A DNA stretch of 15,399 nucleotides, taken from an uncultured Collinsella sp. GTDB taxonomy: Bacteria > Actinomycetota > Coriobacteriia > Coriobacteriales > Coriobacteriaceae. The position numbers were made by a program, and so were the translations under genes. The stretch is taken from the NCBI GenBank assembly GCA_938036665.1, contig CALHWR010000020.1, forward strand, positions 1-15,399, given 5' to 3'. This document shows positions 1 to 15,399 of this stretch, piece by piece (position 1 is the stretch's first letter; each line of letters starts with the position of its first letter). The notes under the pieces were generated by a model. The model was not told the origin of the DNA and made no database searches. It was given only the letters and a program-made list of their open reading frames with translations.

Positions 1-142
1 TCGCGCTGTCGGAGTAGAACTCGTAGGGGGGATAGTCGGGGCTGGTACCCATGACCAGCACCAGCTTGCCGCTGGTGGAGGTCTCGGGAGCGGCCACGGC
101 ATCGGAGGGGACGCTGTCGGGGGTGAAGGTGTCGGTGGAAGC
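1..142 (-). other. Segment resembling the mature N-terminus of an amino-acid ABC transporter solute-binding protein
   Basis: Codons 95-141 of the left-edge frame encode a Thr/Ser/Pro/Ala-rich stretch such as normally follows a lipoprotein cysteine, and then GTSPDYPPYEFYSD. This is the typical first strand and ligand-pocket start of SBP_bac_3 binding proteins for polar amino acids. No signal peptide or lipobox precedes it here, because RsfS sequence occupies that place. It therefore looks like a fragment taken from another locus. The exact junction cannot be fixed without the parent sequences, but it should lie near 140-145. Confidence 0.7.
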
Positions 143-424
143 GACCTTCTCCTCGATCTCGTCGACGATCGAATCGACCTGACGGTTATTGGTACCGGTG
201 GCGAGCACAAAGTAATCGCACACGTCGGAGAGCTCAGTCAGATCGAGCACCTGCACGTCCTCGCCTTTCTTGTCGTAGGCGGCCTGCGCGGCGGCGCGGG
301 CGACATCCTCGGCGGCGACACCGCTCGCGGACAGGGAGGCAGCGGTGCGGTCGGACGTGGCAACGAAGCTCTTGTGCTCCACACCTTCAAGAATCTGCTC
401 GTCGGTCATGGTCTCGTCGGCCAT
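1..424 (-). CDS. rsfS: RsfS N-terminal half joined in frame to a solute-binding-protein segment (partial)
   Basis: The reading frame opens at ATG 424 and is unbroken for 141 codons to the window edge. The start is supported by AGAGGT five bases upstream. Residues 1-45 are a polar extension. Residues about 46-94 match the first half of RsfS (ribosomal silencing factor, binds L14 and blocks subunit joining), with DKKGEDVQVLDL, DYFVLATG and RQVDSIVDEIEEKV. From residue 95 the RsfS pattern stops: the second half of the domain, with its VVVH and LExLW-type motifs, is not there. Instead the frame reads a Ser/Thr/Pro/Ala-rich linker and then KLVLVMGTSPDYPPYEF, the first strand of a type 3 amino-acid ABC transporter binding protein. 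The gene lies 28 bases after yqeK, the place where rsfS is expected after obg-nadD-yqeK. The RsfS identity of the first part is clear to me; the joined product as a real protein is doubtful. Confidence 0.75.
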   Translation of the reverse strand, partial: MADETMTDEQILEGVEHKSFVATSDRTAASLSASGVAAEDVARAAAQAAYDKKGEDVQVLDLTELSDVCDYFVLATGTNNRQVDSIVDEIEEKVASTDTFTPDSVPSDAVAAPETSTSGKLVLVMGTSPDYPPYEFYSDSA

Positions 425-452
425 GGAATACCTCTTTCTAGACACACCCGAG

Positions 453-1061
453 CTAGCGCAGCTGGGCGTAATGGTTGTAAATCGTAATAGCCGTGGGATA
501 AAGATAACGCCCGGACTGGATCACGTAGACCAGACCCTGCGCAAAACAGGAGAAGAACAACTCGTCAAGCGTCGACTCCCCCACCATCTTGCGCAGCGCA
601 TGGGCATAATCACCATGGCGGTTGGGCTCGATGGCATCGGCCACAAAGACCACCATATCGAGCGGCGTCATGTCGCAGGCGCCAACGGTGTGACGGTCGA
701 CAGCCTGGAAAACAGCAGACGATAGCTCGGGAAAAAGCTGCGGAAGCTCATAGGCGGCAACCGGGCCATGCAGCAGCGGTGTCGCGGCCGAAGGAGAGCC
801 GGCAACCTTAATGCCGTAGTGCAACGCGCGGGCCACGAGCTCGTCGTCGGAGAGCACCTTATCCCAGTCGTGAATCAGGCCGGCGGCAGCGGCATCAAAG
901 CGGTCAACGCCGTAGACCTCGGCCAAATGAAGCGCGGTCTCGGCAACACCCAGCGAATGCATGTAGCGCTTGCGCTTATCCTTCATACGCACATCAAGCA
1001 GCTCTTGAATGCGCTTAAGCAACGCGCGCTCATCGCCTTCAAACTGATCCTCTACCGACAA
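453..1061 (-). CDS. yqeK: YqeK-like HD-domain hydrolase (symmetrical Ap4A-type)
   Basis: This 202-residue protein has the HD-superfamily metal ligands in order: H35 (MHSLGVA), H64-D65 (GLIHDWDK), H98 (LLHGP), H124 (DRHT) and D142 (FVADAIEP). The pattern is that of the YqeK family, which hydrolyses diadenosine tetraphosphate symmetrically to ADP in Firmicutes; that activity is taken from the family. It is soluble, with no signal or membrane segment. It sits 12 bases after nadD and 28 before rsfS, the usual nadD-yqeK-rsfS order. The start given is TTG at 1061, preceded only by a weak GGGGG. The nearby ATG in the gap is out of frame, and an internal TTG at codon 15 is possible, so the first residues are uncertain. 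In Gram-positive genomes YqeK is often made next to or fused with NadD. Confidence 0.88.
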   Translation of the reverse strand: MSVEDQFEGDERALLKRIQELLDVRMKDKRKRYMHSLGVAETALHLAEVYGVDRFDAAAAGLIHDWDKVLSDDELVARALHYGIKVAGSPSAATPLLHGPVAAYELPQLFPELSSAVFQAVDRHTVGACDMTPLDMVVFVADAIEPNRHGDYAHALRKMVGESTLDELFFSCFAQGLVYVIQSGRYLYPTAITIYNHYAQLR

Positions 1062-1073
1062 CGTAGACCCCCA

Positions 1074-1751
1074 TCACTCAAAATCTTCTTGACCCAGATC
1101 GGTATACAGCCCGCGTTTACGAATATAGCCGAGCACGGACTCGCTCGTAAGATAGCGCACGCTCATGCCACGGGCAACTCGCTTGCGAATGTTGGTCGAG
1201 CTAATCGCCAGCGCCGGAATCTGGATATAACGCACGTCAAACGGCAGGCCCGACTCTTTAATTCGCGCGCGAGCAGTATCGATATCAAAGCCCGGTCGCG
1301 TCGCCGCAATAAACGTGGCAAGCTCGGCGATTCGGTCGGCATCATGCCAGGTCACAATATCTATAATCGCGTCAGCGCCCGTAATAAAGTAGAGCTTTAC
1401 CTGAGGCGGGTAAAAGTCGCGAAGGGCATGAAGCGTATCGGCCGTATAGGTCACGCCCGGACGGTCGATCTCGAATCGGCTCGCCAAAAAAGCCGGATTC
1501 GCAGCGGTGGCGAGGACCGTCATGGCATAACGGTCCTCGGCAGGCGTCACCGGTTTGTCGAGCTTAAAGGCGGGAGAGCCGGCCGGCATAAAGAGCACGG
1601 CGTCCAAGTCGAGCGACTCGCGCGCCTGCTCGGCGGTAACCAAGTGCCCGTAGTGAATCGGGTCGAAGGTGCCACCCATGATGCCAAGCCGAAACTCCTG
1701 ACCATCCTTGATAGGCAGCTCAGGCAGACCAATTCCACCGCGCAGCGACAT
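1074..1751 (-). CDS. nadD: Nicotinate-nucleotide adenylyltransferase
   Basis: This enzyme transfers AMP from ATP to nicotinate mononucleotide, giving deamido-NAD, a shared step of de novo and salvage NAD synthesis. The 225-residue protein shows the nucleotidyltransferase signature GGTFDPIHYGH at residues 26-36 and the ISSTNIR motif at 183-189, both phosphate-binding elements of the family. The middle part has the expected FMPAGSPAFK and FITGADAI segments. Length is within the family range, with about 20 residues before the first strand. The ATG at 1751 follows the obg stop by only three bases. Its Shine-Dalgarno (GGAGGG, about 10 bases upstream) lies within the last codons of obg, so the two genes are probably translationally coupled. 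Confidence 0.95.
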   Translation of the reverse strand: MSLRGGIGLPELPIKDGQEFRLGIMGGTFDPIHYGHLVTAEQARESLDLDAVLFMPAGSPAFKLDKPVTPAEDRYAMTVLATAANPAFLASRFEIDRPGVTYTADTLHALRDFYPPQVKLYFITGADAIIDIVTWHDADRIAELATFIAATRPGFDIDTARARIKESGLPFDVRYIQIPALAISSTNIRKRVARGMSVRYLTSESVLGYIRKRGLYTDLGQEDFE

Positions 1752-1754
1752 GAC

Positions 1755-3232
<1,478 letters not shown>

Positions 3233-3234
3233 AC

Positions 3235-3277
3235 AAAAAGAGGGAGACCCTTGAATCCTAAAACTCAAGTGCCTCCC
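3235..3277 (-). terminator. Intrinsic terminator or attenuator between rpmA and obg
   Basis: Read on the minus strand, GGGAGGC (3277-3271) pairs with GTCTCCC (3248-3242), with one G-U pair. After a single mismatch, CTTGA (3269-3265) pairs with TCAAG (3254-3250). The loop is ten bases. A TCTTTTT run follows at 3241-3235. This is a complete hairpin plus U-tract, 25 bases after the rpmA stop. It would end most rplU-rpmA transcripts and lower the flow into obg. Confidence 0.8.
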
Positions 3278-3302
3278 ACATATGTGCTCTATGAAGGGTG
3301 AA

Positions 3303-3560
3303 TTACGCGTTCGCGAGCGGGCGTACGCTGACCCTGTGCTTGATACCCTTGTGGAACTCAACGGTACCGTCGACCAGCGCGAACAGCGTGTCGTCCTTGC
3401 CACGGCCAACGTTCTCACCCGGGTGGATGTGAGTGCCGTGCTGACGGACGAGAATCGTGCCCGTGGTTACCGTCTGGCCGGCATAGCGCTTCGTGCCAAG
3501 GCGCTGACCGCGGGAGTCACGGCCATTACGGGAGGAACCGAGTCCTTTTTTGTGTGCCAT
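3303..3560 (-). CDS. rpmA: 50S ribosomal protein L27
   Basis: This 85-residue protein matches L27 over its whole length: [15 protein letters not shown] at the N-terminus, which reaches toward the peptidyl transferase centre, then [16 protein letters not shown] and HPGENVGRG. It starts directly with MAHKKG, so it lacks the cleavable leader found in Firmicutes and some others, and no ysxB/prp protease gene lies between rplU and rpmA; the two facts agree. The ATG at 3560 has TAGGT 8 bases upstream. It follows rplU by 33 bases and is followed by an intrinsic terminator. Confidence 0.97.
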
Positions 3561-3593
3561 TGTGTATACCTACTCTTTCGTTACGAGTGTAAT

Positions 3594-3968
3594 CTACTCG
3601 GCGACGGGAGCCTCGGCAACAGCCTCGGCCTCTGCCTTGACAGCCTTCTTGGCGCGGGACGTAGCCTGGACCTTCACGATCTTCAGCTTGGTGAGCTGCT
3701 GACGGTGACCCTTCAGACGACGATAGCGCTTACGCTTGTGGAACTTGAAGACCAGCTGCTTCTCGCCCTTGAACTGCTCAACGATCTGAGCGGTAACCTT
3801 GGCCTTGGCCAGCTTGTCGGGATCGGTGACGATCTTCTTACCATCGTTGAGGAAGATGACCGGCAGGGTGACCTTGTCGCCCTCATTGCCCTCGATCTTC
3901 TCGACGGTGATGACATCGTCGGTGGCGACCTTGTACTGCTTGCCGCCCGTGTTAACGATTGCGTACAT
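3594..3968 (-). CDS. rplU: 50S ribosomal protein L21
   Basis: Structural protein of the large subunit that binds 23S rRNA. MYAIVNTGGKQYKV at the start and KFHKRKRYRRLKGHRQQLTK in the second half are standard L21 signatures. I place the start at ATG 3968, giving 124 residues, and not at the ATG seven codons upstream (3989). The reason is that a GAAGGG Shine-Dalgarno lies about 9 bases before 3968, within the longer frame, and known L21 proteins begin MYAIV. The end is an Ala/Glu/Val-rich tail of about 18 residues beyond the usual core. A strong promoter lies about 40-70 bases upstream, so this is the first gene of an rplU-rpmA transcript. Confidence 0.97.
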   Translation of the reverse strand: MYAIVNTGGKQYKVATDDVITVEKIEGNEGDKVTLPVIFLNDGKKIVTDPDKLAKAKVTAQIVEQFKGEKQLVFKFHKRKRYRRLKGHRQQLTKLKIVKVQATSRAKKAVKAEAEAVAEAPVAE

Positions 3969-4010
3969 GTTTACTTGCCCTTCATGCATCAGTTAGTGCA
4001 ACAGTCGAAT

Positions 4011-4039
4011 ATAGTAGCAGGCGATAATACCCCCGTCAA
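4011..4039 (-). promoter_or_regulatory. Sigma70-type promoter of rplU-rpmA
   Basis: On the minus strand TTGACG (4039-4034) and TACTAT (4016-4011) are separated by exactly 17 bases. Each hexamer differs from consensus at one position. The transcript would begin near 4004 and carry a leader of roughly 36 bases before ATG 3968. The -35 hexamer contains the TGA stop of the upstream TIGR03936 gene, so the promoter is packed into the gene end. Confidence 0.8.
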
Positions 4040-4848
4040 CGAGTATGTGGAGCAAATCCACAAGTTCGCACAGGTATGGGGCTGACGAGTCGGCCCTCGT
4101 CGTCCTCGCATGCTTGATTCTGACGCTCGACATCGTAGGAGCAGATGGTCACGAGGTCTTGCATACCGGTGGAAACAATAGGTGCATCGACGCCCGGGGT
4201 CAAGCCCTGCAACAAAACATCAGCAGCAGAAAGCAAAATCTCCGGACGCATGGAGCCCTCGTTGTCGGCATGGGTGTCGAGCATGAGCACCAGATGGTCC
4301 GGACGCTCCCCCGCCGTGAGCTCATAGCCCACCAGTGTGTGGTCAAGGTCTAATCGCTTGCTCTTCTTACCGCGCGCATAGTCAATACCATGACCCGCGC
4401 GCAGCATGTCAATCGCGGCGCGTACCTCATCGGCGCTCACGGGCGCCTCGGGATCCAAGTGCAGGTCGATGCGATACGACAGGCGCGTGAGCTGCGCCGT
4501 CAGCGCCGGCGTGCGCACGTCGATGTAGGCAGCCTCGATAGGCGCCAGATCGGCTGGGGACGCGGAGGCCAGGCGCTCAAAAGCCTCGTCAAGCGCGACG
4601 AACTCAGTCATAAACAGGTCGTACCACTCGCAGGTCGACGACGTGCCCACGGGCAGCGCCGACGAAAAGCCCACGCGCATATGCGGCGAGAAACCCTGTG
4701 TCACGGCATAGGGCAGGCCCGCACGGCGCACGATGCGCTCAATGGTATGGATTAGTTCCAGATGGCCCAAGTACTTGAGGCGATCACGCTTGCCGTAGCG
4801 AACGCGCAGCCTAAAGAGCGTGGGATTGTCGGTCAAGCGCTCACTCAT
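4036..4848 (-). CDS. TIGR03936/DUF2344 radical-SAM-associated protein
   Basis: This 270-residue protein begins with the family pattern RVRYGKRDRLKYLGHLELI, followed by AGLPYAVTQGFSPHMRVGFS and ALPVGTSS. It is the usual partner of the TIGR03960 radical SAM protein: in many bacteria the two are fused, and here they are separate but overlap by four bases (ATGA), so they should be co-translated. The molecular role of the pair is not established to my knowledge. The frequent place next to RNase G, rplU, rpmA and obg suggests a link to RNA or ribosome maturation, as inference only. The typical RNase E/G gene (rng) between this gene and rplU is missing here; a promoter takes its place. Confidence 0.88.
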   Translation of the reverse strand: MSERLTDNPTLFRLRVRYGKRDRLKYLGHLELIHTIERIVRRAGLPYAVTQGFSPHMRVGFSSALPVGTSSTCEWYDLFMTEFVALDEAFERLASASPADLAPIEAAYIDVRTPALTAQLTRLSYRIDLHLDPEAPVSADEVRAAIDMLRAGHGIDYARGKKSKRLDLDHTLVGYELTAGERPDHLVLMLDTHADNEGSMRPEILLSAADVLLQGLTPGVDAPIVSTGMQDLVTICSYDVERQNQACEDDEGRLVSPIPVRTCGFAPHTR

Positions 4849-6722
4849 GCGCGATCACCCATCAATACGTTCTTGGCGTGGAGCGTGGGACAGATTCCGC
4901 AACCGGTACACGACGTGCGGGTGCAGTCGGGCGTCGTGACGCCCTCGAGCGAGCGACGGTACTCGCGCTCGAGGAAGCCGCGCGTGCAGCCGGGGCTCAC
5001 ATGCTCCCACGGCAGGCGCCAGTCCAACTCGTAGGGCAGGTGCACCAGCTCGTTGAGGTCGATGCCGTTTTTGGCAGCAGCCTCCTTCCAGTTATCGAGC
5101 GAGAAATGCTCTACCCAGGCGTCAAAGCGAGAGCCAGCGCGCCAAGCATCGATGATGACGGGCGTCATGTCACGACCGGCGCGGGAGAGCGCGGCCTCGA
5201 TGAGCGAGGTCTCGGCATCGTGGTAATGCACGCGGACGGCACGGTTGCGAACGCTCGTGATAAGCAGTTTCTGGCGGCGCTTGACGTCGTCGTAATCGAG
5301 CTGCGGGCACCACTGGAAGGGTGTTGCCGCCTTGGGGATGAATACCGAAACAGAGATAGACACCGAAATAGACCCGCGGCGCGCCTTGGGCACCACGGAG
5401 CGACCGAGCTCCAGCACGTGATCGGCCAGGTTGGCGATGGCCACGATGTCCTCGTCGCGCTCACCGGGAAGGCCCATCATGAAGTAGAGCTTCATGCGGT
5501 TCCAGCCGGCCTCGAAGGCCGCCTTGGCCGCTCGGTCCAGGTCCTCCTCGGTCACGTTCTTGTTAATGATGTCGCGCATACGCTGGCTGCCCGCCTCGGG
5601 CGCGAACGTCAGGCCGCCCTTCTTTTCGCCGGCGACCGACTCGGCCATATCAACGCCAAACGAATCCAAGCGCTGCGACGGAATGGACACGCGAATACCC
5701 GTGTCCTCCAGACGACGGTTGAGCCTACCGAGCACGTCACGGATGCAGGAGTGGTCGGTCGTCGAAAGCGAGGTAAGCGACACCTCGTCATAGCCAGTCT
5801 TTTCCAAGCCCTGGATCACCGATGACACGATCTGGTCGGCCGAGCGCTCGCGTACCGGACGATACGTCATGCCTGCCTGGCAAAAACGACAGCCGCGGGC
5901 GCAGCCACGCAAGATCTCGATAGACAGGCGATCGTGGACGAGCTGCGCATACGGCACGCACGACTGCGACAGCGGATTCGTGGCGCCGAAATCCTCGACG
6001 ACGCGCTTGTAGACCACGGCCGGAGCATCCTTGCCCTCGCGCGGCACGGTGTAGCCATGCGGCGAGCAGAGCTCGTCGTGACGAATCTCATAGAGCGACG
6101 GCACGTAGTTGCCGGCAATGGATGCAAGCTGCTCAACAATCTGCGCGCGCGGGACTCCTTCGTTGCGCAGGCGCCGATGCAGCTGGCAGGTCTCGAGCAG
6201 CGATTCCTCGCCCTCGCCGATGAGGATGGCATCGAAGAAGGCCGCGTACGGCTCGGGGTTGTACACCGAGGGGCCGCCGGCGATGATGATGGGGTCGTCT
6301 TCACCTCGGTCGGCCGCTAACAGCGGAATGCCAGCGAGATCGAGTGCCTCGAGGAAGTTCGTCACCGCCATCTCGTGCGGCACATGCAGACCGACGATAT
6401 CAAACGAAGCAACGGGGGCAGCGCCTTCGAGCGACAGCAGCGGAATGCCCGCCTCGCGCATGGCGTCACCCATATCGGGCCACGGCACATAGCCACGCTC
6501 GCAGGAGATGCCCTCGGCCTGGTTAAGGATGTTGTAGAGGATGGCGATGCCCTGGTTGGGCAAACCAACCTCGTACACATCCGGGTAGATCAGGCAGCAA
6601 CGGTAGTCGGCATCGACCTTGGAAAGCGTGCCCCACTCGTGATCGATATAGCGGCTCGGCTTTTCGACCTTGGCGAGCAGCGGCTCAATTAAATGAAAGC
6701 AGTCTTGATACGGAACGCGCAA
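4845..6722 (-). CDS. TIGR03960 family radical SAM protein with B12-binding-like N-terminal domain
   Basis: This 625-residue protein has an N-terminal region that resembles a cobalamin-binding fold (DIVGLHVPHEMA, IIIAGGPSVYNPEP, AILIGEGEE) but lacks a clear DxHxxG. Then comes the radical SAM core with the [4Fe-4S] ligands C274, C278 and C281 in RGCARGCRFCQAG, and the later MKLYFMMGLPGE strand. A cysteine group at C600, C605, C608 and C611 near the C-terminus could hold zinc or a second cluster. The substrate is unknown. The start is TTG at 6722 with AGGGG seven bases upstream, ten bases after the DUF697-like gene. It overlaps the TIGR03936 gene downstream by four bases, which strongly suggests a joint function. 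Confidence 0.9.
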   Translation of the reverse strand: MRVPYQDCFHLIEPLLAKVEKPSRYIDHEWGTLSKVDADYRCCLIYPDVYEVGLPNQGIAILYNILNQAEGISCERGYVPWPDMGDAMREAGIPLLSLEGAAPVASFDIVGLHVPHEMAVTNFLEALDLAGIPLLAADRGEDDPIIIAGGPSVYNPEPYAAFFDAILIGEGEESLLETCQLHRRLRNEGVPRAQIVEQLASIAGNYVPSLYEIRHDELCSPHGYTVPREGKDAPAVVYKRVVEDFGATNPLSQSCVPYAQLVHDRLSIEILRGCARGCRFCQAGMTYRPVRERSADQIVSSVIQGLEKTGYDEVSLTSLSTTDHSCIRDVLGRLNRRLEDTGIRVSIPSQRLDSFGVDMAESVAGEKKGGLTFAPEAGSQRMRDIINKNVTEEDLDRAAKAAFEAGWNRMKLYFMMGLPGERDEDIVAIANLADHVLELGRSVVPKARRGSISVSISVSVFIPKAATPFQWCPQLDYDDVKRRQKLLITSVRNRAVRVHYHDAETSLIEAALSRAGRDMTPVIIDAWRAGSRFDAWVEHFSLDNWKEAAAKNGIDLNELVHLPYELDWRLPWEHVSPGCTRGFLEREYRRSLEGVTTPDCTRTSCTGCGICPTLHAKNVLMGDRA

Positions 6723-6732
6723 CAGAAAACCC

Positions 6733-7662
6733 CTAAGCAGCGAGATCGGATGCGTCTTGGTAGGACGCCATAGGACGGGTAGCGCCCGCGACCGTGGTCA
6801 CCAGATCGCGAACGCGGGAGAACGTGGCAGTGACCACCTCGTTGGCACGGCTGTAGTCGACATCGCGCTCGTAGAGCGAAACAAGCGCACGGCCCATGCC
6901 ATAGGTGCCCGCGGCAGCAGTGAGCGCCTTAACGGCAAACCCAATATGCGGCGTCTGCTTGACGAGCGCGCGGGTGACCGCGCGGATCACAAGACCGCCG
7001 GCAAGCACGCCCGCGACCTCGTAGCCGCGCTCAGGCTTAATGCCGCGTCCAAAGACGGCAGCGAGCTCAAAGAGCATGCCCACCTGCGCCAGCGCCATAA
7101 CGGGATAATCGGCGCCCGGCAAAAACACCAGCGCACCGGTCGCCATATTGGTGAGCGCGCACGAGGTGATGATACGATTAGCTGCCGCGATGCGCATAAA
7201 GGCAAAGTTCGCCGCAAAAGCCGTTTCCTTGTCGGTGCGATCGAGAATCCAGCGGGCAAGCGTCTCGAGCAGATACGTCTTATCGGTTGCCGCCACCACG
7301 CCGAGCATGGGCGTGGACTCCTCGATAAACGGCACCTCCACAGCAGACTCGGCAAGCACGCACACGGGCGCGCCGGCGATCACGAGCTCCTGCACGGCAC
7401 TCTCCAGGCGGTCGGAACCACACGAGAGCACCAGTACCACATCGGTATCGGTCTTTGGAGCAATTCGCTCCTCCCCCAGACGCTCGACGCGCACAATGCC
7501 CGAGGTCGCCTGCGGCACAAAGGCGTCACGCACCGTCTCAGCAAGAAAGCGCGAGGCGGACGAATCCAGATAGACCGAGACGCGCACCGGCGTATCGGAA
7601 TCCTTCTTAACGGACGCGCCCATCTTAAAAGCGCGGGTCAGCTTATCTACGGGAATTTTCAT
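6733..7662 (-). CDS. DUF697/YcjF-like protein with a degenerate GTPase-like N-terminal domain
   Basis: The C-terminal part of this 309-residue protein (about 150-265) has the DUF697 pattern: the NRIITSCALTNMATGA stretch, LPGADYPVMALAQVGML, and two later hydrophobic segments near 213-232 and 240-262. In known proteins this domain follows a GTPase domain. Here residues 26-140 look like the remains of such a domain: strand DVVLVLS (74-80), AGAPVCVLAES where the NKxD strand would be, and a helix ending LARWILDRTD. No P-loop GxxxxGKS, DxxG or NKxD is present. ATG 7662 has GGAGG 8 bases upstream, and the gene follows rodA by 18 bases. Its place at the end of the mre-mrdA-rodA run suggests a membrane-associated role linked to elongation or envelope stress, but the function is not known. 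Confidence 0.72.
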   Translation of the reverse strand: MKIPVDKLTRAFKMGASVKKDSDTPVRVSVYLDSSASRFLAETVRDAFVPQATSGIVRVERLGEERIAPKTDTDVVLVLSCGSDRLESAVQELVIAGAPVCVLAESAVEVPFIEESTPMLGVVAATDKTYLLETLARWILDRTDKETAFAANFAFMRIAAANRIITSCALTNMATGALVFLPGADYPVMALAQVGMLFELAAVFGRGIKPERGYEVAGVLAGGLVIRAVTRALVKQTPHIGFAVKALTAAAGTYGMGRALVSLYERDVDYSRANEVVTATFSRVRDLVTTVAGATRPMASYQDASDLAA

Positions 7663-7680
7663 AGCAAACCCCTCCAGCGG

Positions 7681-8907
7681 TTACGCGGCGCCCGAACGAT
7701 GCCGCCATATGGATTGTACGATACCCACCGTCAGCAGCTGAATCATCATCGAAGACGAACCGAAGCTAATAAACGGTAGCGGAATACCGGTAATCGGCAT
7801 CATGCCGATGCACATGCCGATGTTTTCGAAGGTCTGGAACGCCCACATGCCAACGATGCCCACACACGATAGGCGCAAGAACAGCGACTCACACTTAAAG
7901 GCGACGCGAATCGTCGAAAAGATCAGCAGCACGTAGAGGCATAGGAGCAAAAAGGAACCGCAAAAGCCAAAGGTCTCGGACAGGAAGGCGAAGACGAAGT
8001 CGGTGTGGAACTCAGGCAGAAAGCCGCCGACCGACTGCGTCGCATGGCCCAAACCCTTACCAAAGAAGCCGCCCGAGCCAACGGCGATAAGCGACTGCTG
8101 CAGGTTGTAGGCATCGTCCGAATCGGCATTATCGGGGTCGATAAAGACCGTCAGACGGTTCATCTGATACTGCTTGATGAGCACATCGTGGCCGAGCAAC
8201 GAATCAAAGACCGAATCGAGCGCCAGGACGAGGGCCACCAGGCCCACGAGCAGGGCCAGGGTCGACAGCACCCATTCGCGGCGTGCACCGCTCATACAAA
8301 TGACGATGGCGCCCGAAACCAGCACGACCAGGCCCGAGCCCAGGTCGCCCATGGCAACGACGGCCAAAAACGGAATGGACAGCATGCCGCAGAGCTTGAC
8401 GTAGTCGCGAGCGGTATCGATGCGACCGTTATACTGCGAGCCAAGCGTAGCAATAAAGAAGATGGTGATGAGCTTGGCAAGCTCAACCGGCTGGAATGTC
8501 AAGCCGATACCGGGAATCTTGATCCAGCCCGTCATGCCCAGACCGCCCGTATAGGACAGACCTGGAATCTTGGGCGAAAAGATCACGATCAGGTCGATGA
8601 CGAGCAACGCCGTCGAGAAATTGGAAATACCGCGCAGGTCGGTACGCCAGACCAGCACCGCCAGCACCGCCCCGATACCAATTCCCAGCAGATGGCGTGA
8701 GAACGAGGCATCGGCCTTAAACTGCGAAGCCGACCAGATAATGATGGCACCGTAGGCGACGAGCGCCACTGTAGCCACGAGCACACCGATATGCACCTTT
8801 TGGCGAAACGTGCCGCGCGAGGCCGAAAGTTGCTTGTTGACGCGGTCCAGGCTGCTGCGAGAGCCGGTCTTGGTTGAACGGAACAGATCCGCCGGAGAAA
8901 AATCCAT
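7681..8907 (-). CDS. rodA: SEDS-family peptidoglycan glycosyltransferase RodA
   Basis: RodA polymerises lipid II into glycan strands during lateral wall growth, paired with PBP2. This 408-residue protein has about ten membrane segments and the SEDS signatures: WIKIPGIGLTFQPVELAKL, GDLGSGLVV, LIAVGSGGFFGKGLG and FLPEFHTDFVFAFL. D303 in HTDF matches the aspartate that is essential in characterised RodA proteins. The closing segment GMMPITGIPLPFISFGSSS is also typical. The first 38 residues are a polar cytoplasmic extension, somewhat longer than in E. coli. ATG 8907 has AGGAGG five bases upstream. The gene starts nine bases after the mrdA stop, so the two partners are made from one message. Confidence 0.96.
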   Translation of the reverse strand: MDFSPADLFRSTKTGSRSSLDRVNKQLSASRGTFRQKVHIGVLVATVALVAYGAIIIWSASQFKADASFSRHLLGIGIGAVLAVLVWRTDLRGISNFSTALLVIDLIVIFSPKIPGLSYTGGLGMTGWIKIPGIGLTFQPVELAKLITIFFIATLGSQYNGRIDTARDYVKLCGMLSIPFLAVVAMGDLGSGLVVLVSGAIVICMSGARREWVLSTLALLVGLVALVLALDSVFDSLLGHDVLIKQYQMNRLTVFIDPDNADSDDAYNLQQSLIAVGSGGFFGKGLGHATQSVGGFLPEFHTDFVFAFLSETFGFCGSFLLLCLYVLLIFSTIRVAFKCESLFLRLSCVGIVGMWAFQTFENIGMCIGMMPITGIPLPFISFGSSSMMIQLLTVGIVQSIWRHRSGAA

Positions 8908-8916
8908 CGCAACCTC

Positions 8917-10986
8917 CTATCGAACCGAAGAATCGCCCGAGGCCGAAGAGGTATCGGGCTCGTCATAAATCACGCCGAGCACGTCGCGCACGACATGCAT
9001 CGCGGTATCTGAGCCGCCGCCGCCCTGCTCCAGGACAGTAGCGATGACATACTTGGGGTCATCGGCCGGTGCATAGGCGCAGAACCACGCGTATTCGTCC
9101 TCGCCGCTTTTCTCGCCCGTGCCCGACTTGCCGTATACCTGCGGCGTCAGGGTGCCAAAGTGAGCCGCCAGGGACGTCGATGCCGTGTAAATCACGTCGT
9201 GCATGCCGTTGCGAACAAGAGCCAAATCCGAATCGCTGTTAATCTTGGCCTCCAGGCGCTTCTTCTTGCCCTTGCCGTTGTACTTATAGGCATCGCCGTC
9301 GCCATCGCGCGACACGGCAGACAAAAACACGTGAGGCACGTACTGTTTGCCGCCGTTGGCAAGACCCATATAGGCGCACGCCATCTGCAGGGGCGTCACC
9401 AGGATGTCGCCCTGGCCGATAGCAATGTTGGTCATATCGCCGGCATTCCACTTGCGGTCCTCGGCAGAGGCGTCGGTGAAGTACGACTCTTTCCACTCGG
9501 CATCGGGAATACGGCCCGCGCCCTCACTCGGCAGATCGATACCGCAGGTCTTGCCTAGACCCCAGCGACGAAAGACCTCCTGCAGGCCCTCGGGATGTTG
9601 CTCGTCATAGAAGAACGCCTTGCCCATGTCGTAGAAGACGGGGTCGCACGAGTTGGCGATACCCGACTGCAGCGTCATGGTGCCGTGGCCAGACGTCAGC
9701 CAGCAGCGCTTGCCCCAAGCCTTGCCCAGGCCCGTCCAATAGCCCGTGCAGTTGGTTGTCTGCGTTGAGGTGTAGGTTCCAAACTCAAGACCGGCCAGTG
9801 CCGAGAGCGGCTTGATGGTCGAGGCCGACATGTACTGTCCGCTAATGGCGCGGTTGAGCAGCGGGTGCGAACCCTTGTCATCATTGAGCTCGGTCCACAC
9901 GTCATTTGAGACGCCGCCGATAAAGACGGACGGATCGAACTTGGGCTCGCTCGCCATGCCCAGGATCTCACCATTGTTGGGATCGAGGCACACCACAGCG
10001 CCGTTGCCGGCATTGCTGTAGCCGGTGGTCTTGGCAAGCTCGATGGCGCTCGCCAGCGCCGTCTCACAGGCCTGTTGGATCTTAAGGTCGAGCGTGAGCT
10101 TAATGTCGGAGCCGGCCTTGGCGGGCACGGCGCCGGCCTGACCGGTCACATTGCCCGAGGCATCGACCTTGACGGTCTGCTCGCCACGAATACCCTGCAG
10201 CAGGTTTTCGTAGTAGCTCTCAACACCCGCCTGGCCCACGATATCGCCCGACTGGTACGTAATCTTGCCAGCAGAAGCATCATCATCGCCAGAGGTTTTC
10301 TTATTCTGGGCCTCGAGCTGCTCGGAGGTAATGGTGCCGGTATAGCCCAAAATGTGACAGGCCGTCTCGCCGTACGGGTACTGGCGCTCGGTACGCTCGG
10401 CAATCTTGACGCCCGGGAACTCGCCTGCGTGCTCCTTGATATAGGCAACCGTGGAACGACGGACGTCCGTCGCGATGGTATGCAGGCTCTGGGCGCCCTC
10501 GGAATTGTCCTGAATATTGCGCAGAACCGCCACGTAGGGCATACCGAGCACGTTGGCAAGATGGCGAACCAGAACCTCATCCTCGGCAAGGTCGCGGTAA
10601 GCCACGACAGCAAGTGAGGGACGGTTCTGGACAAGTGCCACGCCATTGCGGTCGAGGATGCGGCCGCGCACAGCGGGTGTGGTAACGGTGCGCGTCTGAT
10701 TGCTATTAGCCTGCTTTTCGTAATAGTCCGACGAGACCATCTGCATGCCCCACAGCTTGACGGCAAGCGCCGCGAACATCGCGCCCACACCCGTGGTGAG
10801 GATGGAGAAGCGGCCCTTAAAGGCGGTCGCCGCGGTATTGCCCTCGCCCTCGGTGGCGCGCGGGGCCGTTCCATGCTGCGTATCGTAGGTAAAACGGGAA
10901 TCGCCGCGACGCATGATGACCAGCGCGACCACGATGGCCACAACCAGCACGATACCGGCGATAATAACCGTCATCTGGGAAGACAT
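8917..10986 (-). CDS. mrdA: Penicillin-binding protein 2 (class B elongation transpeptidase)
   Basis: PBP2 cross-links peptidoglycan during elongation as RodA's partner. In this 689-residue protein the nucleophile motif is S389-T-I-K392, the second motif is S446-C-D448 (SxD as I recall from E. coli PBP2, not SxN) and the third is K620-S-G-T. The pedestal begins with VRGRILDRNG. Two hydrophobic segments lie before it: residues 6-25 and about 61-84. The second is the usual single anchor. The first is an added one with a 35-residue polar loop between. The start at ATG 10986 has GGGGAGG seven bases upstream, so the long form is likely real. The C-terminus ends in a short Ser/Asp-rich tail. It begins 13 bases after mreD. 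Confidence 0.95.
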   Translation of the reverse strand: MSSQMTVIIAGIVLVVAIVVALVIMRRGDSRFTYDTQHGTAPRATEGEGNTAATAFKGRFSILTTGVGAMFAALAVKLWGMQMVSSDYYEKQANSNQTRTVTTPAVRGRILDRNGVALVQNRPSLAVVAYRDLAEDEVLVRHLANVLGMPYVAVLRNIQDNSEGAQSLHTIATDVRRSTVAYIKEHAGEFPGVKIAERTERQYPYGETACHILGYTGTITSEQLEAQNKKTSGDDDASAGKITYQSGDIVGQAGVESYYENLLQGIRGEQTVKVDASGNVTGQAGAVPAKAGSDIKLTLDLKIQQACETALASAIELAKTTGYSNAGNGAVVCLDPNNGEILGMASEPKFDPSVFIGGVSNDVWTELNDDKGSHPLLNRAISGQYMSASTIKPLSALAGLEFGTYTSTQTTNCTGYWTGLGKAWGKRCWLTSGHGTMTLQSGIANSCDPVFYDMGKAFFYDEQHPEGLQEVFRRWGLGKTCGIDLPSEGAGRIPDAEWKESYFTDASAEDRKWNAGDMTNIAIGQGDILVTPLQMACAYMGLANGGKQYVPHVFLSAVSRDGDGDAYKYNGKGKKKRLEAKINSDSDLALVRNGMHDVIYTASTSLAAHFGTLTPQVYGKSGTGEKSGEDEYAWFCAYAPADDPKYVIATVLEQGGGGSDTAMHVVRDVLGVIYDEPDTSSASGDSSVR

Positions 10987-10999
10987 CTACGAGCCTCCC

Positions 11000-11566
11000 C
11001 TATTTGAGCTTACGGGTCTTGGGCTTAAAGCGCATGCCCGTCTGGCGTCCGCCACGTGCGGAGAATCCATAACCGGACTGCGGCACGACGCCGGACATCA
11101 AAAACGGAATGGCAACCAAACCCGTCAGGATCGAAGACGGCAGCGCATGGCCGAAGATCGCCACGACAAAGCTCGTCTCCAAACCCATAAACAGCAAGAT
11201 GATGCTGTAGATCACATTAATGACGAGCGCGAAGGCACCCACAGTGATGCCGCGCGCACTCGGGGTACCGCCCGTCTGACCGGCGGCGCTATGCACCAGG
11301 GCAAAAGAACCCACGGTCAGCAGGAGCGACATAACGCCCACCGGCACGGCAGCGGAAAGGTCATAGAACAAGCCGCTGCAAAAACCGCACACGACGGCAC
11401 GGGTCGGGTCGCCCGAGAACACGCTTATGCACACCAGGATAATCATAAAGTTGACGCGACCGCCCGCAATGGAGATCTGCGGTGCCAGGCCTGCCTGCAG
11501 CAGCACGCACACGATGGCGGCGATTACAAACGTACGGGAGCTCATCCCCTGCTCGTGTAGATCCAT
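11000..11566 (-). CDS. mreD: Rod shape-determining protein MreD
   Basis: MreD is an integral membrane protein that links MreC, PBP2 and RodA. The protein is almost entirely hydrophobic, with about five or six membrane segments (FVIAAIVCVLLQAGLA, FMIILVCISVF, CGFCSGLFYDL, AFALVINVIYSIILLF, FVVAIFGHALPSS) and a basic tail ending RKLK. The segment GFCSGLFYDLSAAVPVG fits the MreD pattern of a glycine and aspartate within a membrane segment. Two in-frame ATGs lie six bases apart (11572 and 11566). AGGGGG sits one base from the first but seven from the second, so I prefer 11566. It begins just after mreC and before mrdA. Confidence 0.9.
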   Translation of the reverse strand: MDLHEQGMSSRTFVIAAIVCVLLQAGLAPQISIAGGRVNFMIILVCISVFSGDPTRAVVCGFCSGLFYDLSAAVPVGVMSLLLTVGSFALVHSAAGQTGGTPSARGITVGAFALVINVIYSIILLFMGLETSFVVAIFGHALPSSILTGLVAIPFLMSGVVPQSGYGFSARGGRQTGMRFKPKTRKLK

Positions 11567-11577
11567 GGACATGCCCC

Positions 11578-12576
11578 CTACTCGCTCGAGCCGGAATCGG
11601 TCGTCTCGGACGTGTCGGAACCGTCATCCGAGCTCTCGTCCTTCGTCTTGGTCGCAGCATCGCGCGACGTTCCCTGCGGCGTGCTATTAGCGGTGCTCAC
11701 GTCCTCATCCGAGGCCGACTGTTCGTCGGTCAGCGAGGTGATGACCAGCACTTCCTCGTTGTTCTCGGCCGTCGTCTGGGCGCGCACCACAATGGTGTAG
11801 TACACGTCGTTTGCGGATTTTTCAACCGACGAGACGGTGCCGAGCGGTAGACCCTTGGGGAACACACCGCCAATGCCCGAGGTCACGATGATGTCGCCAA
11901 CCTTAACATCGGAGTCGACGCTCACGTACTCAAGACGCAGCGTGCCGTCAGCCTGACCCTGCAGCATACCCTGGGCGCGCGTGTCCTGCACCATGGCGGA
12001 TACGCCGGAGTTCTCGTCGCCAATCAGGCGCACGGTAGAGGTCTTGGCCGATACCTCGATAATCTGGCCGATAACACCGGCAGAACTCGTCACGGGCATG
12101 TTGATGGTAAGCCCGTCGGCAGAGCCCTTGTCGATGGTGACGGTCGAGGTCCAGGCATCGCCGGAGGCACCAACGATACGAGCAGCGGTCGATTTGAGGT
12201 TATAGGTCGACTGCAGGCCGACCAGCCCCTCCAGACGCTCGGCGGTCTTTTGAGCCTCGGAGAGCTCAGCAACCTTAGAGGTCAGTTCCTCGTTTTGCTT
12301 CTTAAGCTCGTCAAGCGTGTCCTGCGACGCCGTAAGGTTAGAGAACACGTTACCGATCGCATTGAAGGGAGCCGCCACAGCCGAGCCCACAAAGCGCACC
12401 GGCGAGGTAATCGTCGTCACGCCCGAGCGCACGGCATGAATCGGTCCTGCCTCGCCCTCGCGGATGTAAAACGTGAGCAGCAACACCGAAATCAGGCTGA
12501 AAACAATCAACGGGCGCATACCCGTTGATTGTCGCTTGGTATTCAGATTTGTGGAGAAACCCGAAGATCGTGCCAA
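11578..12576 (-). CDS. mreC: Rod shape-determining protein MreC
   Basis: MreC is the extracytoplasmic scaffold that activates PBP2-RodA. In this 332-residue protein residues 1-20 are cytoplasmic and basic, 22-38 span the membrane, 80-118 form a coiled coil (DELKKQNEELTSKVAELSEA), and 125-280 are the beta-rich MreC domain (TIDKGSADGL, VTSGIGGVFPKGLPLGTV). Residues 283-332 are a Ser/Thr/Asp/Glu-rich tail, probably disordered and surface-exposed. The start is TTG at 12576 with AAGGTGG seven bases upstream. A perfect 12-bp hairpin lies within codons 15-25 and its loop holds the in-frame ATG of M20; a shorter protein starting at M20 cannot be excluded. It starts 21 bases after mreB and ends a few bases before mreD. 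Confidence 0.95.
   Translation of the reverse strand: MARSSGFSTNLNTKRQSTGMRPLIVFSLISVLLLTFYIREGEAGPIHAVRSGVTTITSPVRFVGSAVAAPFNAIGNVFSNLTASQDTLDELKKQNEELTSKVAELSEAQKTAERLEGLVGLQSTYNLKSTAARIVGASGDAWTSTVTIDKGSADGLTINMPVTSSAGVIGQIIEVSAKTSTVRLIGDENSGVSAMVQDTRAQGMLQGQADGTLRLEYVSVDSDVKVGDIIVTSGIGGVFPKGLPLGTVSSVEKSANDVYYTIVVRAQTTAENNEEVLVITSLTDEQSASDEDVSTANSTPQGTSRDAATKTKDESSDDGSDTSETTDSGSSE
12503..12532 (-). repeat. Perfect 12-bp inverted repeat inside mreC, possible attenuator
   Basis: ACAATCAACGGG and CCCGTTGATTGT form a perfect 12-bp stem with a six-base loop. On the transcribed strand the loop is TATGCG and the stem runs straight into TTTTC. It lies at codons 15-25 of mreC, about 45-75 bases after the start. 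A chance match of this length is expected about 0.001 times per loop size in a window this long. It could act as a partial terminator that makes less mreC than mreB, or as a translation or RNA-stability element. Confidence 0.6.
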
Positions 12577-12597
12577 ATGGAATCCACCTTTTGGAAA

Positions 12598-13641
12598 TTA
12601 AGCATTGGTCTGGACGAAGCCGCCATCAAACGCATTGGCCTCGAGCACGCGGGCACAGCCGTTAACGACGTTATCGAGCGCCGTGGGGCTGACGTTGACC
12701 GAAACACCGGTCTCATCGCGCAGGCGCACGTCGAGACCGCGCAGCAGCGCGCCGCCACCGGTCAGCAAAATGCCGTAGTACATAAGGTCCGAGGCAAGAT
12801 CGGGAGGCGTAGCGTCGAGTGCGTCCTTGACGGCCTTGGCCATCTCGTCGAGCGGCTTGTTGAGCGCGCGACGAATCTCCTCGCTCTCGATGCGCACGGT
12901 CTTGGGCAGACCGGTGATCACGTCGCGGCCGTTGACCTCAACGTCGAGCTCGTCCTTGAGCGGCACGGCGGAACCGACCTTGATCTTGATGTCCTCTGCC
13001 GTACGCTCGCCGATGGCCAGGTTGTAGGCATCACGAACGTGCGTGAGGATGGCCTGATCGAACTCGTCGCCGGCAATACGAATGGACTGCGAGACGACGA
13101 TGCCGCCCATAGCGATAACGGCGACCTCGGTGGTACCGCCGCCGATGTCGATGACCATGGAGCCGGTGGGTTCCTCGACGGGCAGGTCGGCGCCGATAGC
13201 GGCTGCCATAGGCTCTTCGATCAGATAGGCCTGGCGGGCACCGGCCTGGATCGTGGCCTCAAAGACAGCGCGCTTCTCAACCGACGTGACACCGGAGGGA
13301 ACGCAGACGACAACACGCGGACGCGGAGTCCACGGATAGCGCTTCTCGGACGCCTTATCGATAAAGTAGCGAAGCATGGCCTCGGTAACATCGAAGTCGG
13401 CGATGACGCCGTCCTTCAGGGGACGAACAGCCACGATGTTGCCGGGCGTACGGCCGAGCATGCGCTTTGCCTCGATACCGACCGCCAAGATGCGCTCGTC
13501 GTTCTTGTCGATGGCGACAACAGAGGGCTCACGAATGACGATGCCCTTGCCGCGCACGGAGACAAGCGTATTTGCGGTGCCGAGGTCGATGGCAAGATCG
13601 CCCGCATAGCTACCGAAGAACATATCCATCAAAGAAAACAA
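12598..13641 (-). CDS. mreB: Actin-like rod shape protein MreB
   Basis: MreB is the bacterial actin that orients wall synthesis under the membrane. This 347-residue protein has the actin-fold motifs: phosphate 1 IDLGTANTL at 18-26, phosphate 2 IDIGGGTTE at 164-172, the EEPMAAAIG segment with E142-E143, and the adenosine motif LTGGG ending at 297. Length is normal. The N-terminus MFSLMDMFFGSY is hydrophobic and could form the membrane-binding helix. The start is TTG at 13641, with AGGAG five bases upstream; the ATG four codons later lacks a well-placed site. It is the first gene of the elongation run and follows a 115-base gap with a hairpin and a possible promoter. Confidence 0.97.
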   Translation of the reverse strand: MFSLMDMFFGSYAGDLAIDLGTANTLVSVRGKGIVIREPSVVAIDKNDERILAVGIEAKRMLGRTPGNIVAVRPLKDGVIADFDVTEAMLRYFIDKASEKRYPWTPRPRVVVCVPSGVTSVEKRAVFEATIQAGARQAYLIEEPMAAAIGADLPVEEPTGSMVIDIGGGTTEVAVIAMGGIVVSQSIRIAGDEFDQAILTHVRDAYNLAIGERTAEDIKIKVGSAVPLKDELDVEVNGRDVITGLPKTVRIESEEIRRALNKPLDEMAKAVKDALDATPPDLASDLMYYGILLTGGGALLRGLDVRLRDETGVSVNVSPTALDNVVNGCARVLEANAFDGGFVQTNA

Positions 13642-13686
13642 CGCAACTCCTGATGTGTTGGATGATTGCTGGAAAACTACTAGCCC

Positions 13687-13692
13687 ATCATA
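13687..13692 (-). promoter_or_regulatory. Candidate -10 element upstream of mreB
   Basis: TATGAT on the minus strand, 45-51 bases before the mreB start, differs from TATAAT at one position. No good -35 hexamer is found 16-18 bases upstream (GTGAGG at 17), and that region lies inside the hairpin at 13702-13734. If real, it is weak or depends on an activator. Confidence 0.35.
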
Positions 13693-13701
13693 CTAGCGCA
13701 A

Positions 13702-13734
13702 GCCCGGCACCTCACTTGCGGTGAAGCGCCGGGC
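13702..13734 (-). terminator. Strong hairpin between the TPR gene and mreB, terminator-like without T run
   Basis: GCCCGGCGCTTCAC pairs with GTGAGGTGCCGGGC over 14 positions including two G-U pairs, with a five-base loop. It lies about 22 bases after the TPR gene stop. The bases after it (TTGCGC) are not a T run in this direction, and the other direction gives only AAAGC. It may be a weak terminator, a transcript 3' end protector or a processing signal. Confidence 0.5.
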
Positions 13735-13756
13735 AAAGCTAAATCCCATAAGGTCA

Positions 13757-15061
13757 CTACTGGTTGTCAGCAGCCGAGAAATCCATATCGAGCGAAGAAA
13801 CGGCCCAGCCGATATGGTTGTCGGAGCGCACGAATTTGACGGTGTACTCCTGCTCGCCGCCCTTGGACAGCGATGCCTTCACCTTAGCGGCCGTCTCGGT
13901 CATGGACTGATCCATGCCCTCGACGGACACGGTGGCACCCTGCGGAATCGAGGAGATGATCATCGACTTAGCGTCCTCGGACAGGCTCGAGGTCAGGCAA
14001 GACTCGGCCTTTGCGGTGTCACCGTCACCGGCAGCCTGGAACAGATCGGTAACGACAGACTCCTGAGACGGGAAGCCAAAGCCGCGCGTGTAGGCAAAGC
14101 CCAGACCGCCCGCGGCGATCAAAATGAGCAGAAGCAGCACGATGAAGACTTTAAGACCCGTGTGGCGATGGCGACGACGGACCTTGGCCTGCTTACGATC
14201 CTGACGGTCCTGCTGGACCATCTCGGACTCGGACAGCGTAAAGAAGCCGGTGTCCGAGGGATCGGGCATAAACTGACCGGTCGCGCCCGTAGGATCGAGC
14301 GGATCGACGGCAGGAGCGTCCATCGCGGGCGCCGGAGCCGTGGCCATAGCCGTCTGGGCAGACAGCGCAGCAAGCGAATCCTGCACGCGGGCAAGCTCAT
14401 CGGCCTGCTCGGAGGTGAGCTGGTAGATGCCATCGGCAGTAGCGGCGTTAAAGGCGTCGAGTGCGTCGGAGGGACGGCCGGCGGCAGAAAGCGCCTGACC
14501 CATGCCGGCGTTGAGCGCACGCGTGTCGTCGCGGGGGCCGGCAAAGTCGATAGCCGTGCGGTAGGTCTCCACGGCATCCGCCGGACGGCCGAGCTTAATG
14601 AAGCAACGACCGAGCTCGCCGAGTGCGGCGGCAGGAGCCGGATTGGCGCCGTCGATGGCAGCCTGACGGAAGGCGGTTCCCGCGTTGGCATAGTCGCCCG
14701 ATTGGAACAGCGCATTGCCCAGACCCAGATAGGCCTTGAACGGCGTGGCATAGGAAGCATCCTGCGTAGCAGCAGAGAACGCCTGAGCGGCCGTCGTGTA
14801 GTCGCCCACCGCGGCGAGCGCCTTGCCGCGGTTGGTGAGCAGCGCGCCGCGCTTGCCGTAGGTGCCGTCGTTGAGGGCGGCGGCATAGGCCTCGGCGGCC
14901 TCGGCATACATGCCCAGGTGCATCAAGGCGTTGCCACGAAGGTGGTCGGCCTCGCCCATAATCTCATCGGGAGTCTTTGCCGCCCCAAGCATCTGGGCTG
15001 CAGCGGAAAAATCACCCGCGCGGTAAGCGGCGCGGCCCTGTTGGATCAGCTGGCTATTCAA
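13757..15061 (-). CDS. TPR-repeat membrane protein with small extracytoplasmic domain
   Basis: Residues 1-210 of this 434-residue protein hold about six TPR-like units with the W/L-G-Y-A-F-A spacing (for example LRGNALMHLGMYAEAAEAYA and TNRGKALAAVGDYTTAAQAF). Then come an Ala/Pro/Asp-rich linker (235-288), a basic patch RRRHRH at 295-300, one membrane segment at 303-325, and about 105 outer residues with alternating helix and strand that end WAVSSLDMDFSAADNQ. The outer part resembles small NTF2-like domains in shape only; I do not recognise a family. The basic patch before the membrane puts the TPRs in the cytoplasm and the tail outside. The start is TTG 15061 with AAGGGGA upstream, 11 bases after the cyclophilin gene. 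A link to the mre genes is suggested by position alone. Confidence 0.85.
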   Translation of the reverse strand: MNSQLIQQGRAAYRAGDFSAAAQMLGAAKTPDEIMGEADHLRGNALMHLGMYAEAAEAYAAALNDGTYGKRGALLTNRGKALAAVGDYTTAAQAFSAATQDASYATPFKAYLGLGNALFQSGDYANAGTAFRQAAIDGANPAPAAALGELGRCFIKLGRPADAVETYRTAIDFAGPRDDTRALNAGMGQALSAAGRPSDALDAFNAATADGIYQLTSEQADELARVQDSLAALSAQTAMATAPAPAMDAPAVDPLDPTGATGQFMPDPSDTGFFTLSESEMVQQDRQDRKQAKVRRRHRHTGLKVFIVLLLLILIAAGGLGFAYTRGFGFPSQESVVTDLFQAAGDGDTAKAESCLTSSLSEDAKSMIISSIPQGATVSVEGMDQSMTETAAKVKASLSKGGEQEYTVKFVRSDNHIGWAVSSLDMDFSAADNQ

Positions 15062-15072
15062 GGAAGTCCCCT

Positions 15073-15399
15073 TTACTCGTGAACGATCTCGACATGAACG
15101 ATCTCGTCGCCGGCACGCAGCTGCGAAATCACATCGAGACCCTCGACCGTGGTACCAAAGACGGTGTAACCGGAATCGAGGTTATGCTGGGCACCCAGGC
15201 AGAAGTAGAACTGCGAACCCGCGGAATCGGGGTCCATGGAGCGCGCCATGGCAAGGGCGCCATCGACATGGCTGTTGCGCGGATTGGTGGCGAACTCGCC
15301 CTTGATGCAGTAGCCGGGGCCACCGGTACCGGGCATGCCGTCGGGGCCCTCAAGACCGGCGGCGACGTCGGCGCCGGACATGTCGCGGGTATTGGGGTC
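15073..15399 (-). CDS. Cyclophilin-type peptidyl-prolyl cis-trans isomerase (C-terminal part)
   Basis: The frame is open to the right edge without a start, so only the last 108 codons are seen. The part present has the cyclophilin core: GGPGYCIKGEF, ALAMARSMDPDSAGSQFYFCLG and YTVFGTTVEGLDVI. SQFYF lies on the substrate face, and the strand FGTTVEGLDVI is standard. The loop before GGPGY is long (MSGADVAAGLEGPDG), as in several actinobacterial members. The N-terminal FHR segment and any signal peptide lie outside the window, so location in the cell cannot be told. The last codons give VEIVHE and the gene ends 11 bases before the TPR gene, suggesting one transcript. Confidence 0.92.
   Translation of the reverse strand, partial: DPNTRDMSGADVAAGLEGPDGMPGTGGPGYCIKGEFATNPRNSHVDGALAMARSMDPDSAGSQFYFCLGAQHNLDSGYTVFGTTVEGLDVISQLRAGDEIVHVEIVHE

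What the first reader, a model, noticed from the sequence alone, without database searches (positions are those of the whole stretch)
1..424. RsfS turns in frame into an ABC transporter binding protein
The first 94 codons are an N-terminal half of ribosomal silencing factor RsfS in its expected place after yqeK. Then, with no frameshift or stop, the frame reads a lipoprotein-type linker and the first strand (GTSPDYPPYEF) of an amino-acid solute-binding protein. The two families have no known link, and the second half of RsfS is absent. The most likely reason is a chimeric join in assembly near 140-145. A true deletion or inversion that fuses two loci would break a conserved ribosome factor and strip the binding protein of its signal peptide.
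Basis: partly seen in the sequence, partly recalled or inferred. Interest (0 to 1): 0.7.

Follow-up and report, generated by a model that had tools for sequence, protein, structure and literature searches.

The report
Chimeric contig end, not gene fusion
The apparent fusion of a ribosome-silencing protein with a transporter's binding protein is almost certainly an assembly error that joined DNA of two unrelated gut bacteria at a short stretch they share, so it is ordinary.

Summary
It is best explained as a chimeric join of two species. Window 141-15399 is one unbroken 96% match to two Collinsella chromosomes, and none of 39 matching congeners (43 searched) extends below base 141. All 15 Collinsella loci read have an intact RsfS. 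Bases 1-140 belong to a Vescimonas-like (Oscillospiraceae) SBP: P0119 is identical over 53 residues; in 197 Coriobacteriales genomes the best match is 38% identical. Both genes encode EIEEKVA at the join; a Vescimonas-like SBP gene and the nearest Collinsella rsfS share an exact 20-base word there. One other public protein (P0121, 605-base contig) has the same join on a slightly different RsfS and appears to end in Illumina adapter; I read it as the same error recurring, but it is the one observation favouring a real fusion. In passing: the donor SBP is a natural circular permutant of conventional SBPs in its own genus; window 1-140 holds its permutation linker.

The parts
161..424 (-). 5' part of a Collinsella rsfS (before the shared word; 88 codons)
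   Evidence: Pfam PF02410 over residues 44-97 of the ORF; up to 100% protein identity over residues 1-95 in Collinsella loci; one collinear DNA match 141-15399 to each of two Collinsella genomes
141..160 (-). 20-base word encoding EIEEKV plus two bases of the Ala codon; the join lies in or at the edge of this word
   Evidence: Identity of 27 Collinsella rsfS rows to the window ends after this word; an SBP gene (L114) and the nearest Collinsella rsfS (L113) share an exact 20-base word at this site, which differs from the window's word by one base
1..140 (-). Foreign tip: linker and first strand of an Oscillospiraceae-like SBP_bac_3 lipoprotein gene (ASTDTFTPDSVPS...GTSPDYPPYEFYSDSA)
   Evidence: 100% over 53 residues to P0119 and 96% to P0120; SBP_bac_3 in both; as DNA, best held genome match 91% over bases 9-73 (G415)
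453..1061 (-). yqeK-like HD-domain ORF, the usual upstream neighbour of rsfS
   Evidence: ORF list; inside the collinear match to Collinsella; gene name by recall

Best explanation
Window 141-15399 is ordinary Collinsella chromosome (obgE-nadD-yqeK-rsfS region). Bases 1-140 are a short tip from a different gut bacterium, a Vescimonas-like member of the Oscillospiraceae, taken from its amino-acid SBP gene. The assembler most likely passed from one genome to the other through a shared word of about 20 bases (GAGATCGAGGAGAAGGTCGC) that both genes hold because both encode EIEEKVA. The tip then probably ended where the donor's conserved SBP sequence branches among strains. Shown: two taxonomic sources, the sharp break, intact relatives of both genes, and a shared 20-base word at the site in related genomes. 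Inferred: that the step was a short-read assembly error (rather than a PCR or ligation chimera), the donor's exact DNA at the word, and why the tip ends where it does.
For: One uninterrupted match of window 141-15399 to each of two Collinsella genomes, 95.9% and 96.5%, ending at 141. In 39 of 39 matching congeners (43 searched) the DNA match does not go below 141. Intact RsfS with the normal C-terminal half in 15 of 15 Collinsella loci read (L001-L015). The SBP tail at protein level: 1 of 43 same-genus genomes, at 49%; full P0120 in 197 Coriobacteriales genomes: best-scoring 38%, highest identity in the printed rows 39% (table cut). P0119 contains the whole tail at 100% together with SBP sequence before and after it. 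L114 (SBP) and L113 (rsfS) share an exact 20-base word at the join. About 10 shared 20-mers are expected between two genomes of this size by chance alone (uniform bases). Contigs that mix species make up 12.5-51.6% of total contig length in the benchmark assemblies of PMC8171044 (passages read).
Against: P0121 shows the same join in another record, with two residue changes in the RsfS part. No reads were available. The exact donor DNA was not found in any searched genome, so the word in the true donor is inferred from relatives; 8 of 9 SBP gene copies tested share at most 13 bases with any rsfS copy. The reciprocal chimera (SBP into RsfS) was not seen among the 240 proteins listed.
Confidence: 0.95

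Rival explanations
1. A real fusion: a Collinsella lineage received Oscillospiraceae DNA by illegitimate recombination at the ~20-base word, truncating rsfS and making a cytoplasmic RsfS-SBP hybrid.
For: Open frame through the join; a second record, P0121, with the same join and two RsfS substitutions.
Against: No such fusion in the 43 Collinsella genomes searched; the hybrid would lose half of RsfS and the SBP's lipoprotein signal; in both records the foreign part is only about 140-150 bases where it can be read; P0121 ends in KIGRAHV, which the Illumina TruSeq adapter start encodes in that frame (adapter recalled); the SBP side shows no divergence from the clostridial protein P0119 over 53 residues.
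Confidence: 0.03
2. A wet-lab chimera (PCR, whole-genome amplification or ligation) between fragments of the two species rather than a graph error.
For: P0121 seems to keep adapter sequence at its end, so library artefacts may exist in at least one dataset.
Against: The join falls on a word shared by relatives and occurs in two records at the same place; random ligation would not do that, although template switching at a shared word could.
Confidence: 0.1
3. A rearrangement within one Collinsella genome (deletion or inversion joining its own rsfS and its own SBP).
For: Collinsella genomes do carry distant family-3 SBPs.
Against: The best-scoring Coriobacteriales SBP is 38% identical to P0120, whereas the tail is 96-100% identical to P0120 and P0119.
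Confidence: 0.01

Closest known systems
RsfS (ribosomal silencing factor, TIGR00090 / PF02410)
   Same: Residues 1-95 of the ORF are Collinsella RsfS, in its usual place after yqeK
   Different: The C-terminal part of the domain (after profile position 56-57) is absent
SBP_bac_3 amino-acid-binding lipoprotein of Vescimonas-like Oscillospiraceae (P0119, P0120)
   Same: The last 47 codons read the same protein as P0119
   Different: No signal peptide, no lipobox, and only the first strand of the conserved core
Inter-species chimeric contigs of metagenome assemblies
   Same: Two taxa on one contig, joined at a short word shared by relatives of both, 140 bases from the window's end
   Different: The join happens to keep the reading frame

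Membership tests
RsfS (TIGR00090) | Full-length domain match above the curated cut-off | tested here: not met
   52.3 bits against 56.9; positions 3-57 of 99 only
RsfS (PF02410) | Pfam gathering score | tested here: met
   51.6 bits against 21.6, positions 2-56 of 98
SBP_bac_3 (PF00497) | Domain match in the window ORF | tested here: not met
   Not among the matches at E <= 1 in the ORF; the donor proteins P0119 and P0120 do match
Inter-species chimeric contig | The two sides map to different species | tested here: met
Inter-species chimeric contig | Join lies on a word shared by both genomes | tested here: inconclusive
   Exact 20-base word between L114 and L113 at the site, but these are relatives; the true donor's DNA is not held
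Inter-species chimeric contig | Depth or read-pair break at the join | not testable with these tools
   No reads available

The most novel reading that the evidence does not exclude
A real Collinsella lineage carries a truncated rsfS fused to the permutation linker and first strand of an SBP acquired from an Oscillospiraceae at a ~20-base microhomology, as seen in two records (the window and P0121).
Probability: 0.03. Interest if true: 0.5.

Novelty: not a real feature. Interest (0 to 1): 0.1.

Why it matters
It removes a false gene fusion and shows how a word of about 20 bases shared by two gut genera can give an in-frame hybrid protein that enters protein databases (P0121). The side observation, an SBP circularly permuted relative to SBPs of its own genus that are 72-80% identical segment by segment, is a better lead than the finding itself.

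Tried and rejected
Searched for the SBP in viral contigs by protein P0119 (0 matches) and for the join's tail side by a 27-base DNA pattern (0), and window 1-160 in plasmids (no match): no sign of mobile DNA. Searched 400 genomes drawn from the family of G044 (at most 2 candidates scored per genome) and the 32 of its genus for the donor DNA: closest is 91% over 65 bases, so the exact donor genome was not found; one search covered the same 32 genomes again with the same result. Looked for a reciprocal SBP-to-RsfS chimera among the 240 listed proteins: none. tblastn rows reporting 1-132 matches in L003, L005, L008 and L009 looked like fusions but are intact RsfS on reading the frames. A paper search for RsfS with fusion and solute-binding protein gave 2 papers, seen only as listings, neither on this subject by title. 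AlphaFold2 of P0120 with a shallow 20-row alignment gave mean pLDDT 62.6 and pTM 0.46, too poor to use, so no fold search was made. Thought that P0225, P0147 and P0146 might be chimeras with named partner families; Pfam gave no match above its cut-off for the non-RsfS parts.

Full report
What is there. The minus-strand frame 424..2 is open to the window start. Its first part is RsfS: PF02410 positions 2-56 of 98; TIGR00090 at 52.3 bits, below the cut-off of 56.9. After EIEEKV it reads ASTDTFTPDSVPSDAVAAPETSTSGKLVLVMGTSPDYPPYEFYSDSA.

The Collinsella side. In genome contigs the closest matches are Collinsella aerofaciens and relatives. Reading the frames, 15 of 15 Collinsella loci (L001-L015; L001 is the unnamed nearest genome) have an intact RsfS, with ...[36 protein letters not shown]...YRLEKLWGDAP or a near variant after the join site. 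Window 141-15399 matches G003 at 95.9% and G001 at 96.5%, each as one alignment. Within the genus, 39 of 43 genomes match window 1-240 as DNA; 37 begin at 141, one at 143, one at 149; 4 have no match, with at most 18 candidates scored per genome. Identity to 27 Collinsella rsfS rows ends right after GGTCGC. These are 27 of 35 rows held; the other 8 lack the exact 23-base anchor that I used, and the rows are not all independent: L001, L078 and L113 are one genome and differ from the window by one base inside the word, and some other genomes are also held twice.

The foreign side. At protein level the tail is found in 1 of 43 congeners, at 49%. The donor-like protein P0120 matches SBPs in 197 of 197 Coriobacteriales genomes, but the best-scoring match is 38% identical, and 39% is the highest identity in the printed rows (the table was cut; the genomes were drawn from a larger group). 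By contrast P0119 (165 aa, longest contig 2,509 bases) is identical over 53 residues and continues as SBP on both sides, and P0120 (291 aa, full lipoprotein) is 96%. Relatives at 77-82% identity to P0120 include P0104 (77%), which a source names Vescimonas fastidiosa. As DNA, the best held genome match is 91% over window 9-73 (G415); P0104 is read letter for letter from that locus (L125). The exact donor genome was not found.

The join. Both proteins contain EIEEKVA. L114 (SBP gene of G415) and L113 (rsfS of G001) share an exact 20-base word there; it differs by one base from the window's word. The other 8 SBP gene copies tested, same strand only, share at most 13 bases with any of the 35 rsfS rows (L016, L090 and L115 are the same gene). 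If the true donor has a CAC codon for the histidine before EIEEKVA (P0119), the shared word would be 22 bases; this is not known. By uniform-base expectation two genomes of this size share about 10 words of 20 bases and about 3 of 21. That short-read assemblers often start from words of about 21 bases is recalled. PMC8171044 (passages read) reports 12.5-51.6% of total contig length in chimeric contigs for CAMI test data, by its own definition; the passages do not speak of this kind of word. The foreign tip is 140 bases and reaches the window's first base; if the window is a whole contig, which I could not check, the tip is a contig end.

Result against my reading. P0121 (148 aa, one 605-base contig) carries the same join: 96% identical over the whole query. 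It differs from the window at residues 63 (T to A) and 74 (L to I) in the RsfS part and at 137, 138 and 140 in the SBP part. It ends FFADAAKIGRAHV. PPYEFFADAA is found in other SBPs of the family (P0109, P0115-P0118), and KIGRAHV is the translation of A plus the first 20 bases of the TruSeq adapter (adapter sequence recalled). I take it as the same error in another sample, made likely by the shared word, but a rare real fusion with two alleles cannot be excluded without reads. It was the only one of the 120 listed hits (338 found) with the SBP segment.

Side observation. P0120 begins with a lipoprotein signal, then VVDWGETEPYRVLVQKGDPKGLLPGINKAIAEL...EIEEKVAS, then a linker, then the SBP core, and ends at LDGNVGQSYVG. 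In L091, L092, L093 and L126 (G045, G046, G047, G611) the core comes first and the VVDWGETEP... segment is the C-terminus; P0120 residues 109-290 or so and 39-98 or so match them in swapped order at 77-79% and 72-80% identity. Of 32 genomes of the genus, 3 match the permuted form over its whole length (G609, G044, G415), 4 have the conventional order at that similarity, 17 have only more distant core matches (31-54% identity) and 8 have none at E <= 1e-15. Of the 120 listed proteins, 116 are permuted, 0 conventional and 4 undetermined, but that search was biased to the linker region. Of 60 PDB sequences shown (93 found), the best stretches begin at P0120 residue 114 or later, except 6h30_A, where residues 57-241 align to 190-352 of a 460-residue chain. 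Its length suggests two SBP domains in tandem (my reading, not tested), and a tandem duplication that lost its outer parts is one way in which such a permutant could arise. A natural permutant is known for the glucose-binding lipoprotein TpMglB-2 of Treponema (PMC4990184, two passages read), which belongs to another SBP cluster. Paper searches for permuted SBPs (with 6 of 1,526 papers listed) were seen as listings apart from PMC4990184 and showed no amino-acid SBP of this kind by title.

Noticed in passing
P0120, L124, L090, L125 against L091, L092, L093, L126; linker in window 1-140 (-): The donor SBP family is a natural circular permutant: its ~60-residue segment after the lipoprotein signal is the C-terminus of SBPs in other species of the same genus (72-80% identical segment by segment). 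Permuted in 3 of 32 and conventional in 4 of 32 genomes.
   Followed up: partly
P0121 (148 aa, 605-base contig): A database protein that carries the same RsfS-SBP join and ends in KIGRAHV, the translation of the Illumina TruSeq adapter start (recalled): likely a chimeric, adapter-bearing contig.
   Followed up: partly
P0146, P0147, P0187, P0225: Other Collinsella RsfS records on contigs under 1 kb have different C-termini from other points on, which may be further chimeric or damaged records; Pfam names no partner above its cut-off.
   Followed up: partly
PDB chain 6h30_A, against P0120: The only one of 60 PDB sequences shown whose best stretch with P0120 runs through the permutation linker (57-241), in a 460-residue chain; a tandem SBP arrangement would suggest how the permutant arose.
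   Followed up: no
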